From assembly GCA_016584305.1 (NCBI GenBank), contig JACEEZ010000350.1:60551-124550 (forward strand): a stretch of DNA of 64,000 nucleotides, in the 5' to 3' direction. Made by a program: the position numbers and the translations under genes. Source of the DNA: Chionoecetes opilio (taxonomy: Eukaryota > Arthropoda > Malacostraca > Decapoda > Majidae). The notes under the pieces are model-generated. The model saw only the letters and a list, made by a program, of their open reading frames with translations. It did not search any database and was not told the origin of the DNA. Of this stretch, positions 880-62,370 are shown piece after piece (the first letter of the stretch is position 1; every line of letters starts with the position of its first letter).

Positions 880-1014
880 CTAGGTGACCAGGGGCTTGCG
901 GCCACGGATCTTGTTGATGAGGTTGCATATCTTGAGGGCCGGCCCCAGCTTGAGGCCCATGTACTTCATCATCATGTCACTGTTGAGCAGCAGCAGGGCT
1001 TTGCCGTCAATCTC
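880..1014 (-). CDS. Scm: Scm exon 13: second half of SAM domain and stop
   Basis: The acceptor is TTGCAG at 1020-1015 and the TAG stop is at 882-880. It encodes EIDGKALLLLNSDMMMKYMG followed by LKLGPALKIC and a short basic end. This is the most conserved part of the Scm/polyhomeotic SAM (SPM) domain, used for head-to-tail polymerisation. It joins exon 12 in phase 0 after an RRH tripeptide. Confidence 0.95.
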   Translation of the reverse strand, partial: EIDGKALLLLNSDMMMKYMGLKLGPALKICNLINKIRGRKPLVT

Positions 1015-60200: not shown

Positions 60201-62370
60201 GACAGATAGAGAGAAAGATAGACAGATAGAGAGAAAGATAGACAGATAGAGAGAAAGATAGACAGATAGAGAGAAAGATAGACAGATAGAGAGAAAGATA
60301 GACAGATAGAGAGAAAGATAGACAGATAGAGAGAAAGATAGACAGATAGAGAGAAAGATAGACAAATAGAGAGAAAGATAGACAGATAGAGAGAAAGATA
60401 GACAAATAGAGAGAAAGATAGACAGATGGAGAGAAAGATAGACAGATAGAGAGAAAGATAGACAAATAGAGAGAAAGATAGACAGATAGAGAGAAAGATA
60501 GACAGATAGGTAGCAATAAGAACAGTATAGTAGTAGTGGTAGTAGTAGTAATAAAATTGAAAATACAGCAAGCGTAATAACATAAGCAATATAATCATAC
60601 TCTTCTAGTAGTAATAAGTAACCCTGTATTGCTTCTCAGCTCTCCTGGACTCTGACCTGACCGATGACCTGAGGTGTATAAAGAAGATCATACGTGACAC
60701 AGAGGCCTGGCAAGGAAAGGGTACCGGACTGTTGGCTTGGTAAGGGCAGAGAGAGAGAGAGAGAGAGAGAGGAGAGAGAGAGAGAGAGAGAGAGAAGAGA
60801 GAGAGAGAGAGAGAGAGAGAGAGAGAGAGAGAGAGAGAGAGAGAGAGAGAGAGAGAGAGAGGAGAGAGAGAGAGAGAGAGAGAGAGAGAGAGAGAGAGAG
60901 AGAAGAGAGAGAGAGAGAGAGAGAGAGGAGAGAGAGAGAGAGAGAGAGAGAGAGAGAGAGAGAGAGAGAGAGAGAGAGAGAGAGAGAGAGAGAGAGAGAG
61001 AGAGAGAGAGAGAGAGAGAGAGAGGAGAGGAGAGAGAGAGAGAGAGAGGAGAGAGAGAGAGAGAGAGAGAGAGAGAGAGAGAGAGAGAGAGAGAGAGAGA
61101 GAGAGAGAGAACTGATGTCCATATAAAAAAGAAAAGAAATCTAGAGTAATACTTTTAAATAATCCAAAAAAAAGTCAAACAGAGAGAGAGAGAGAGAGAG
61201 AGAGAGAGAGAGAGAGAGAGAGAGAGAGAGAGAGAGAGAGAGAGAGAGAGAGAGAGAGAGAGAGAGAGAAAAGAGAGAGAGAGAGAGAGAGAGAGAGAGA
61301 GAGAGAGAGAGAGAGAGAGAGAGAGAGAGAGAGAGAGAGAGAGAGAGTTTTACTTTGCAACATTTCATACTCATTCGCATTTAATATTTCTGTTCCCCTT
61401 TTTCTAAACAAGACCTTCTAGATTTAAAAAAAGGAAATAGGGAAAAACTGGTTCACAAATAGGGTGGTCATTGATTGGAATGGACTCAGTCGTGTCAGGT
61501 GGTCAGTGCGGAGTCATTAGGGAACTTTAAAAGGAGGCTGGATAATTTTATGGATGGGAAATTAAATTGGGAATGAAATGTGGGTGTAGGTATTGTTAAC
61601 CCCTTGAGACCCAGAACGTAATTTCCATTGTAATTTGGGTACCATTAGACGATTTTTAGTTAATATAAGCAATGTTTTATAGATATGACCTGTTTAGTAT
61701 CCTTGTCGACTAGGTAATTTGGTATATTTAGTTACTTTTCGTTATTTTATGGCTCGACAACAGACGATTTTTTATAGCAAAGGAAAGATCTGGGCGTGAA
61801 GGGGTTATGTAACAGGAACTACCACGTGTAGGTCTCGCGGCCTCTTGTAGCTTCCTTATTTTCTTATGTTCTTATGTGTTTCTTATGTGTTTCTTATGTT
61901 CCTTTCTTATGTTCTTACCTAGGGTGGCATATGTCAAGAGATGTCAGAATAGAAATTTGGACCAGTACATGAGTGAATGCTGGGAGGCCTCCAACATCAT
62001 CGAAATAAAGGACAATAGGCCGACTGACAATCCTTCATCCACCACCACCACTACCACAGACAATCCGCCATCCACCACCACCACCACAGACAAGCCGCCA
62101 TCCACCACCACCACCACAGACAATCCGCCATCCACCACCACCACCACAGAGCTGCCGGGAACGATAGAAGTACACGTGCCTATAATCAACAATGCCCGTG
62201 TTCCTATTAGGTATAAGGTAGTTAGCTATATGCATCCTCCTTACATACCTGTCCCCTTCCTTCCCCCTTCTTCATCGTCAACCCTTACTCCTTTATCGTC
62301 AACTGAAACTACCTCGGAACGGTTTATGGAACTGTCGCCGATGGGAATTCTCGCCGAAACAACAAACTAG
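54288..62370 (+). CDS. C-type lysozyme with Thr/Pro-rich C-terminal extension
   Basis: Join of 54288-54292, 55325-55449, 55972-56127, 60640-60739 and 61923-62370; 834 bases, 277 residues plus TAG, with every intron phase consistent. A signal peptide (about 1-18, hydrophobic VVVLLVLCSALAAA) precedes a mature domain starting KVFTKCEL. The catalytic acids are present: E51 in CIAQYEST and D69 in GSKDYGLFQLN. All eight canonical cysteines are seen (24, 46, 81, 90, 94, 108, 136, 148). The enzyme hydrolyses the MurNAc-GlcNAc bond of peptidoglycan and would be secreted, serving immunity or digestion. Unusual features are a 129-residue tail after C148 rich in TTTTT and DNPPS repeats, a stop codon lying inside a MITE, and a 4-kb array in intron 3 built from the end of exon 3. 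Confidence 0.9.
54293..54490 (-). mobile_element. LINE 3' fragment, antisense, beginning at lysozyme exon 1 donor
   Basis: GTAAGAACATAAGAACATAA continues into GGAAGCTACAAGAGGCCGCG and the 3' UTR reversed. The donor of exon 1 falls exactly at the tail end. Confidence 0.78.
54495..54561. repeat. (GA)n microsatellite
   Basis: Perfect AG repeat in lysozyme intron 1. Confidence 0.95.
54825..55003 (+). mobile_element. TTAA-flanked MITE, copy 13 (right end missing)
   Basis: TTAACCCCTGGAGACTCAGA start; breaks off after GGCTCGACAACATACGA. Confidence 0.75.
55014..55286. mobile_element. hAT-type MITE family B, copy beside lysozyme exon 2
   Basis: CAGAGCCTTTTTT start and AAAATGCACTG end, with a perfect 8-bp duplication GTTCCTGC at 55006-55013 and 55287-55294. 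It ends 38 bases before the exon 2 acceptor. Confidence 0.82.
55325..55449 (+). CDS. Lysozyme exon 2: signal peptide and first helix
   Basis: The acceptor is CTTTCCGGCAG ending at 55324 and the donor ATAT|GTACGTAT lies at 55450. It encodes VQVVVLLVLCSALAAAKVFT and then KCELAEVLETVHHMKRDEAK. Phase 2 in, phase 1 out. Confidence 0.9.
55630..55765. repeat. (GA)n microsatellite
   Basis: Nearly perfect AG repeat in lysozyme intron 2, followed by a short ATT repeat. Confidence 0.95.
55972..56127 (+). CDS. Lysozyme exon 3: catalytic core
   Basis: The acceptor is CCTCCCTCTAG ending at 55971. It encodes TCIAQYESTFNASAINHFNW and then SKDYGLFQLNNKYWCG, containing both catalytic residues, and ends AKNECQIPCS. 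The donor CTCAG|GTAAGAA at 56128 keeps phase 1 to exon 4. The terminal 30 bases are the founder-like unit of the array that follows. Confidence 0.93.
56098..60112. repeat. 30-bp array carrying the lysozyme exon 3 end and splice donor
   Basis: Roughly 130 units containing GTAAGAATGAGTGCCAAATA and CCATGCTCAG. The first unit is the coding end of exon 3 plus its donor. Sub-variants are CTCGG for CTCAG and an extra GAG after GTAA. The stretch 56210-56740 is heavily eroded; 57250 to 60110 is highly uniform. Confidence 0.97.
60137..60507. repeat. 20-bp array
   Basis: About 18 copies of GACAGATAGAGAGAAAGATA with rare GACAAATAG variants, in lysozyme intron 3. Confidence 0.95.
60640..60739 (+). CDS. 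Lysozyme exon 4
   Basis: The acceptor is TTGCTTCTCAG ending at 60639 and the donor GGCTTG|GTAAGG lies at 60740. It encodes ALLDSDLTDDLRCIKKIIRD and then TEAWQGKGTGLLA, the fourth-helix region of C-type lysozymes. A long GA microsatellite begins about eight bases past the donor. Confidence 0.92.
60751..61111. repeat. (GA)n microsatellite with GGAGAG interruptions
   Basis: Starts about eight bases after the exon 4 donor. Confidence 0.95.
61181..61347. repeat. (GA)n microsatellite
   Basis: One AAAA interruption near 61269; lysozyme intron 4. Confidence 0.95.
61430..61885 (+). mobile_element. LINE 3' fragment, sense to lysozyme, split by MITE
   Basis: AAACTGGTTCACAAATAGGG to GTATTG, then a MITE, then TGTAACAGGAACTACC through the TTCTTATG tail, whose continuation forms the pyrimidine-rich tract of the exon 5 acceptor. 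Confidence 0.85.
61596..61806 (+). mobile_element. TTAA-flanked MITE, copy 14
   Basis: Inserted where other LINE copies read GTGTTAAGTAACAG, i.e. at a TTAA. Confidence 0.88.
61923..62370 (+). CDS. Lysozyme exon 5: last cysteines and Thr/Pro tail
   Basis: The acceptor is GTTCTTACCTAG ending at 61922. The split Trp codon continues as VAYVKRCQNRNLDQYMSECW, the expected end of the lysozyme fold. From 62030 to 62150 a 30-bp coding repeat gives DNPPSTTTTT units, followed by a Pro/Ser segment. The frame enters a hAT-type MITE at 62321, which supplies the last 16 residues and the TAG. A donor-like TTAG|GTATAAGG at 62211 could instead splice the tail differently. Confidence 0.75.

What the first reader, a model, noticed from the sequence alone, without database searches (positions are those of the whole stretch)
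880..62370. Minisatellites repeatedly originate at exon-intron junctions
Across two unrelated genes on opposite strands, many intronic arrays begin within a few bases of a splice site or carry the splice site in every unit. Containing it: lysozyme exon 3 donor (30-bp unit), Scm exon 5 donor (64-bp), Scm exon 8 acceptor (about 71-bp composite), Scm exon 1 acceptor (60-bp). Abutting it: Scm exon 11 donor (42-bp, 10.7 kb), exon 4 donor (22-bp), exon 7 donor (ATT repeat), lysozyme exon 4 donor (GA repeat). Random expansion inside introns of this length would rarely hit junctions so often. A mechanism tied to the junction, such as R-loops or replication slippage at splice-site GC/AG motifs, is a possible cause; this is inference.
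Basis: partly seen in the sequence, partly recalled or inferred. Interest (0 to 1): 0.85.

Follow-up and report, generated by a model that had tools for sequence, protein, structure and literature searches.

The report
Crab minisatellites spanning splice sites
In this crab genome many tandem DNA repeats include or touch the ends of exons, but a control that treats repeats as inserted DNA shows this happens about as often as chance predicts, so no special mechanism at exon ends is needed.

Summary
All eight named contacts exist in a brachyuran crab's Scm gene (minus strand) and C-type lysozyme gene (plus strand), and four arrays carry a splice site in most units. In four other gene families sampled from the same genome, contacts recur in all four; two families (myosin, adaptin) gave arrays whose units contain exon tail plus donor.

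The claim of special enrichment is weak. Arrays grow by inserting DNA, so present intron length is the wrong yardstick: the 14 introns total 42.4 kb now but about 13.2 kb with each array reduced to one unit. In those coordinates the independent genes show 12 of 217 junctions inside or within 10 bp of an array, against 10.3 expected (P 0.34). The window shows 7 of 28 against 3.1 (P 0.013), in a window picked because it looked striking. A mild excess of arrays starting 0-20 bp inside introns (2.6-fold) goes with splice-signal composition; splice-like decoys do not differ significantly (donors P 0.051).

Best explanation: ordinary tandem duplication at random places in compact introns, tolerated at donors because the exon-nearest copy still works. 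Human precedents exist.

The parts
56100..60111 (+). 30-bp minisatellite containing the lysozyme exon 3 donor; unit = last 28 nt of exon 3 + GT (a degenerate stretch at 56343-56671)
   Evidence: TRF rows; unit counts and flanks; the distal flank continues as GTAAGAGGCGG, read as the ancestral intron start
55972..56127 (+). lysozyme exon 3, ends ..NECQIPCS
   Evidence: splice reading gives a clean lysozyme frame; match to lysozyme 6ukc
32127..32766 (-).
32737..32974 (-). Scm E4 (MBT repeat)
26671..27537 (-). Scm E7
43110..44512 (-). 60/62-bp minisatellite, about 23 units, CAGGAGTGATGG 22 times; the predicted 5'UTR acceptor of the first coding exon lies in it
   Evidence: no transcript evidence for this acceptor
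43040..43121 (-). Scm first coding exon (MPTPGRG), ATG at 43058
   Evidence: N-terminus matches five decapod orthologs
33452..34616 (-).
34621..34736 (-). Scm E3
1941..12578 (-).
   Evidence: 68 exact unit copies found genome-wide, all in this array
12610..12711 (-). Scm E10
29117..29182 (-).
60748..61347 (+). GA microsatellite starting at +9 after the lysozyme exon 4 donor
61869..61914 (+). 11-bp TTCTTATGTGT array ending 9 bp before the lysozyme exon 5 acceptor (resembles the retrotransposon tail)
13516..13599 (-).

Best explanation
These are ordinary minisatellites born by short tandem duplications at essentially random places in what were compact introns (median about 0.6 kb with arrays reduced to one unit). 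Growth inserts copies, so an array keeps its original distance to the exon while the intron lengthens. When the first duplication spans a donor, later units carry exon tail plus donor. The exon-nearest copy can still be used and the rest is removed as intron, so such duplications survive. Shown: units made of exon tail + donor (+ intron head), distal flanks that continue into unique intron, contact frequency near chance in ancestral coordinates in independent genes, spanning units in two other gene families. Inferred: slippage or microhomology-mediated duplication as the mutational step, use of the exon-nearest donor, selective tolerance. A second, minor contribution: GT-rich donors and pyrimidine-rich acceptor tracts are themselves repeat-prone and seed some abutting arrays.
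For: Two ancestral-coordinate controls on independent genes: 12 of 217 vs 10.3 expected, P 0.34 (within 15 bp 15 vs 11.3, P 0.17; period 7 or more within 10 bp 9 vs 8.6); 9 of 166 vs 8.95 with within-interval placement. Introns 42.4 kb now, 13.2 kb with each array reduced to one unit. Spanning units seen letter by letter. A 4-bp microhomology (AAGA) at the lysozyme duplication boundary. Spanning arrays fewer, not more, than expected in independent genes (4 vs 7.8; 2 vs 6.3), as purifying selection would give. Abutting donor arrays GT-rich, 0.82 vs 0.53. Decoys do not differ significantly from true sites: donors 7/220 vs 7/81, P 0.051; acceptors 11/388 vs 4/82, P 0.26.
Against: The window exceeds even the ancestral null (7 vs 3.1, P 0.013; within 15 bp 8 vs 3.4, P 0.006; all arrays). 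In the sample array starts are 2.6 times denser at 0-20 bp than at 20-140 bp from junctions (12 and 25 events, P 0.008; period 7 or more, P 0.004). Donor decoys vs true donors is borderline (P 0.051). By eye no microhomology at the Scm E4 duplication boundary. Exon-tail homology was not found in the abutting arrays at Scm E3, E6 or lysozyme exon 4, so decay of once-spanning arrays does not explain them. Three paralogous or clustered genes (many myosin exons on one contig) reduce the independence of the sample.
Confidence: 0.72

Rival explanations
1. A junction-tied mutational mechanism (R-loops, transcription- or splicing-coupled slippage) makes exon ends birth hot spots for minisatellites.
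For: Window excess 7 vs 3.1; 2.6-fold start density at 0-20 bp; the eight donor-abutting sample arrays are all richer in G+T on the sense strand (0.62-0.96) than the mean of the others.
Against: No clear total excess in 217 independent junctions; spanning arrays under-represented there (4 vs 7.8); splice-like decoys away from exons show arrays at rates not significantly different.
Confidence: 0.14
2. Arrays gather at exon ends because unique intron sequence between array and exon is deleted until only the required splice signal remains.
For: Abutting donors in the window sit at +5 to +9, just outside the donor consensus (for E10 by eye).
Against: Cannot make units that contain exon sequence; no relative's genome was available to see the deletions.
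Confidence: 0.07
3. The arrays are wholly or partly assembly artefacts.
For: No reads were available; the proximal lysozyme units at 56160-56671 are degenerate.
Against: Units with private variants, unrelated unit sequences, and contacts within 20 bp on 13 other contigs, spanning units on 5 of them.
Confidence: 0.04

Closest known systems
Minisatellite providing multiple splice donors in human IFI6 (6-16/G1P3; Nucleic Acids Res 1995;23:1854; seen only as a reference entry in PMC2572611; content recalled)
   Same: Short-unit minisatellite at an exon end with a donor in its units
   Different: There multiple donors are reported in transcripts (title); here no transcript data; here units hold up to 78 nt of exon and the lysozyme array is 4 kb
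Internal tandem repeats at exon-intron boundaries of human segmental-duplication genes (PMC2812944, passages read)
   Same: Minisatellites, on average 30-bp units, some at exon-intron boundaries, that alter introns
   Different: Human paralogs, about 4 copies and 160 bp on average; here crab genes with arrays up to 4 kb (spanning) and 10.6 kb (abutting)
Intron gain or shift by tandem duplication carrying splice sites (PMC4974935, PMC2891723; search listing only)
   Same: Tandem duplication that copies a splice site
   Different: There a new or moved intron results; here, as read, an existing intron is lengthened

Membership tests
Splice-site-carrying minisatellite (IFI6 type) | Tandem units of roughly 10-100 bp | tested here: met
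   22, 30, 42, 60/62, 64 and about 71 bp units; 28, 74 and 106 bp in other genes
Splice-site-carrying minisatellite (IFI6 type) | Splice site present in the units | tested here: met
   lysozyme GGTAAG 112 times, Scm E4 donor 10 times in 10 units, E7 acceptor motif 12 times, first-exon acceptor 22 times; not met for the abutting arrays (E3, E6, E10, lysozyme exon 4)
Splice-site-carrying minisatellite (IFI6 type) | Array overlaps the end of a real exon | tested here: met
   exons by clean frame and orthologs; the first-exon 5'UTR acceptor is prediction only
Splice-site-carrying minisatellite (IFI6 type) | More than one of the repeated splice sites is used in transcripts | not testable with these tools
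   no RNA data
Junction-specific hot spot | Contacts exceed expectation in ancestral coordinates | tested here: not met
   independent genes: 12 of 217 vs 10.3; 9 of 166 vs 8.95. In the window alone 7 of 28 vs 3.1, P 0.013
Intron gain by tandem duplication | Intron absent from relatives | not tested
   no relatives' genomes held for this genome

The most novel reading that the evidence does not exclude
Splice signals themselves are mild birth sites: GT-rich donors and pyrimidine-rich acceptor tracts, and retrotransposon tails docked at acceptors, seed arrays. About 2% of sampled exon ends (4 of 217 by TRF, 5 by eye) have a splice site inside an array; if that holds genome-wide, thousands of exon ends carry duplicated, probably copy-number-variable splice sites as raw material for alternative ends, such as a ladder of +10-residue lysozyme forms.
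Probability: 0.25. Interest if true: 0.6.

Novelty: new member of a known kind. Interest (0 to 1): 0.38.

Why it matters
It gives the right yardstick for a tempting pattern: because arrays are insertions, tests of where they start must be run with each array reduced to one unit. With that, an apparent 5- to 6-fold enrichment at exon ends shrinks to about 1.2-fold (not significant) in independent genes. It also suggests that a crab genome tolerates many exon ends embedded in arrays of duplicate splice sites, a natural test set for how the spliceosome chooses among dozens of near-identical donors.

Tried and rejected
Naive controls (placing arrays at present length; array edges near random non-array points: 11 of 206 vs 2.35, P 3.5e-5; period 7 or more, 9 vs 1.4) were rejected as the final test because they leave out points inside arrays and so cannot produce spanning arrays by chance. 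Decayed once-spanning arrays as the source of abutting ones: exon-tail alignment gave no support for Scm E3, E6, E11 or lysozyme exon 4 and a weak rank (10 of 105) for E10. In one search the last distance bin (80-160 bp) is inflated by capped values and is not used; one search replaces it. One search stopped with an error after printing its control; redid the remainder.

Among the titles listed by the paper searches I saw no report of this pattern in crustaceans; that is a statement about those listings only.

Full report
What the window is. The window is C271:60551-124550 of a 1.94-Gb genome in 20,818 contigs. It holds Scm on the minus strand and a C-type lysozyme on the plus strand. Twelve Scm exons splice into one 909-aa frame with a single terminal stop; the nearest relatives are Scylla, Eriocheir and other decapod orthologs (identities of five aligned orthologs 78-90%). 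A further first coding exon (MPTPGRG) lies at 43,040-43,121. The lysozyme reading matches solved lysozymes (best E 1.3e-52). The organism is therefore most likely a brachyuran crab. Chionoecetes opilio would fit by assembly size (2,003 Mb; other crabs in that table 1.0-1.3 Gb; PMC10454600, passages read), but this was not established.

The observation. TRF gives 127 rows, which merge into 45 arrays covering 37.2 kb of 64 kb. Four arrays carry the splice site in most units: lysozyme exon 3 donor, Scm E4 donor, Scm E7 acceptor and the predicted 5'UTR acceptor of the first Scm exon. The lysozyme unit is the last 28 nt of exon 3 plus GT, and the sequence beyond the array continues as GTAAGAGGCGG, read as the ancestral intron; AAGA is present at both ends of the duplicated stretch. 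The Scm E4 unit is 30 nt of exon and 34 nt of intron, and the array ends by running into unique intron. These are duplicated exon-intron junctions, seen directly. The search found 68 exact copies of the 42-bp unit in the genome, all in this one array (exact copies only), so at least this one looks like a private array and not a dispersed satellite.

It is not confined to this window. I sampled other exons of the same genome by protein family, each family chosen without having seen its repeats (adaptin and SNF were added after the first two had been scored): myosin head, CCT chaperonins, adaptin and SNF transporters. Junctions were called from the family match ends plus splice-site weights recalled from memory, not from transcripts. 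Contacts within 10 bp occur in all four families; units that contain exon sequence were seen in two, myosin and adaptin: a myosin exon (C4648) ending AGATTT|GTGAGT with a 28-bp array repeating exactly that; an adaptin exon (C15351) whose last 78 nt plus a GT run form a 106-bp unit; an adaptin exon (C812) with a 74-bp unit starting ATCTAGG|GTAAGT; a myosin exon (C15060) whose tail recurs between GTA runs (seen by eye; TRF reports only the GTA period); and a duplicated myosin acceptor (C18941, 31 bp).

Is it more than chance? With arrays placed at their present length inside present introns, the window has 7 of 28 junctions within 10 bp against 1.1 expected (P 5e-5). In the sample, counting array edges near random non-array points, it is 11 of 206 against 2.35 (P 3.5e-5; 206 after dropping weakly scored junctions). 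Both controls share a flaw: arrays are inserted DNA. Reduced to one unit each, the 14 window introns shrink from 42.4 kb to 13.2 kb, median 1,648 to 589 bp, and an ancestral unit of tens of bases then often overlaps a junction by chance. With that correction the sample gives 12 of 217 against 10.3 (P 0.34; by family 3 of 96, 3 of 55, 4 of 39, 2 of 27; within 15 bp 15 against 11.3, P 0.17), or 9 of 166 against 8.95 when whole intervals are simulated. Spanning arrays alone are below expectation (4 vs 7.8; 2 vs 6.3 in the stricter set). The window itself remains somewhat high: 7 vs 3.1, P 0.013; within 15 bp 8 vs 3.4, P 0.006; for period 7 or more 5 vs 2.8, P 0.11, and within 15 bp 6 vs 3.1, P 0.049. 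It was picked because it looked striking, so these P values are optimistic.

A residual signal. Among non-spanned sample junctions, arrays start 2.6 times more densely at 0-20 bp than at 20-140 bp (12 and 25 events, P 0.008; period 7 or more 9 and 13, P 0.004). These arrays resemble the splice signal beside them: the eight arrays that TRF puts 0-20 bp after a donor average 0.82 G+T on the sense strand against 0.53 for 158 others (P 3e-4; one of the eight is the C15060 composite), and six near acceptors are pyrimidine-rich (0.675 vs 0.52, P 0.012). At acceptors this could also be selection to keep the tract. In the myosin and CCT DNA, donor-like decoys away from exons have an array within 20 bp in 7 of 220 cases, true donors of all four families in 7 of 81 (P 0.051; myosin and CCT alone 3 of 55, P 0.32; with a stricter score 5 of 86 vs 5 of 60, P 0.39); acceptors 11 of 388 vs 4 of 82 (P 0.26). 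So composition may explain much of it, and a small junction-specific effect is not excluded. In the window the abutting donors do not follow this rule (G+T 0.10-0.65).

How it most likely works. A short tandem duplication arises in a compact intron, sometimes across the donor. Unequal exchange or slippage multiplies it (inferred). The donor nearest the exon is intact, so the extra copies leave with the intron (inferred). For lysozyme the 30-nt unit keeps the frame, so use of the second donor would add ten residues; for Scm E4 reading on to the next donor meets a stop. Which donors are used is unknown.

What is known. Human precedents are the IFI6 minisatellite with multiple splice donors (reference entry seen; content recalled) and tandem repeats at exon-intron boundaries of duplicated genes (PMC2812944, passages). 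The crab cases are new members of that kind, at larger size; their share of sampled junctions (4 of 217 by TRF) suggests they are common in this genome.

A side lead. The window's reverse-transcriptase element (RVT_1, E 1.1e-36) ends in ..GCGGCCTCTTGTAGCTTCCTTATTTTCTTATGTTCTTATG. Copies of this 3' tail lie in gene-sense within about 80 bp before four window acceptors (Scm E1, E6, E9 and lysozyme exon 5) and within 20 bp before two sample acceptors (C20129, C812). Two Scm-intron copies, including the element itself, are antisense and not at acceptors, and further copies lie outside the introns tested. In the sampled stretches 18 copies are sense and 3 antisense to the gene matched there (P 0.0015; by contig 10 to 1, P 0.012); not every copy is proven to be intronic. 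Proximity alone in the sample, 2 of 18 within 50 bp against 0.53 expected, is not significant (P 0.10). Targeting or tolerance at pyrimidine tracts would both fit.

What the check changed. The spanning cases were first described as coming from four families; they come from two. Confidence in the best explanation was lowered from 0.75 to 0.72 and that of the junction mechanism raised from 0.12 to 0.14 because the window's 15-bp results had been left out.

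Noticed in passing
39844-39892, 29355-29400, 13580-13623, 61825-61876; sample loci on C20129 and C812: 3' tails of a non-LTR retrotransposon lie in gene-sense upstream of acceptors (4 in the window, 2 in the sample); sense bias 18:3 in sampled stretches
   Followed up: partly
14542-23387: A reverse-transcriptase element (15900-17552, RVT_1) lies between two blocks of the same 31-bp array, as if inserted into it
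   Followed up: partly
25164-26079: The retrotransposon tail itself has become a 52-bp tandem array upstream of Scm E8
   Followed up: no
56128-56217: The first lysozyme repeat units after exon 3 stay open in frame, so alternative donor use would add about ten residues per unit
   Followed up: no
29873-31341: 26-bp array whose reverse complement contains GTCTTGATGTG, also present at the Scm E6 acceptor 0.5 kb away
   Followed up: no
62042-62150: 30-bp coding repeat in lysozyme exon 5 (TDNPPSTTTTT)
   Followed up: no
whole window, 15 matches: A second interspersed repeat, about 77 bp (TAACCCCTTCACGCCCAGATCTTT..), in both orientations
   Followed up: no
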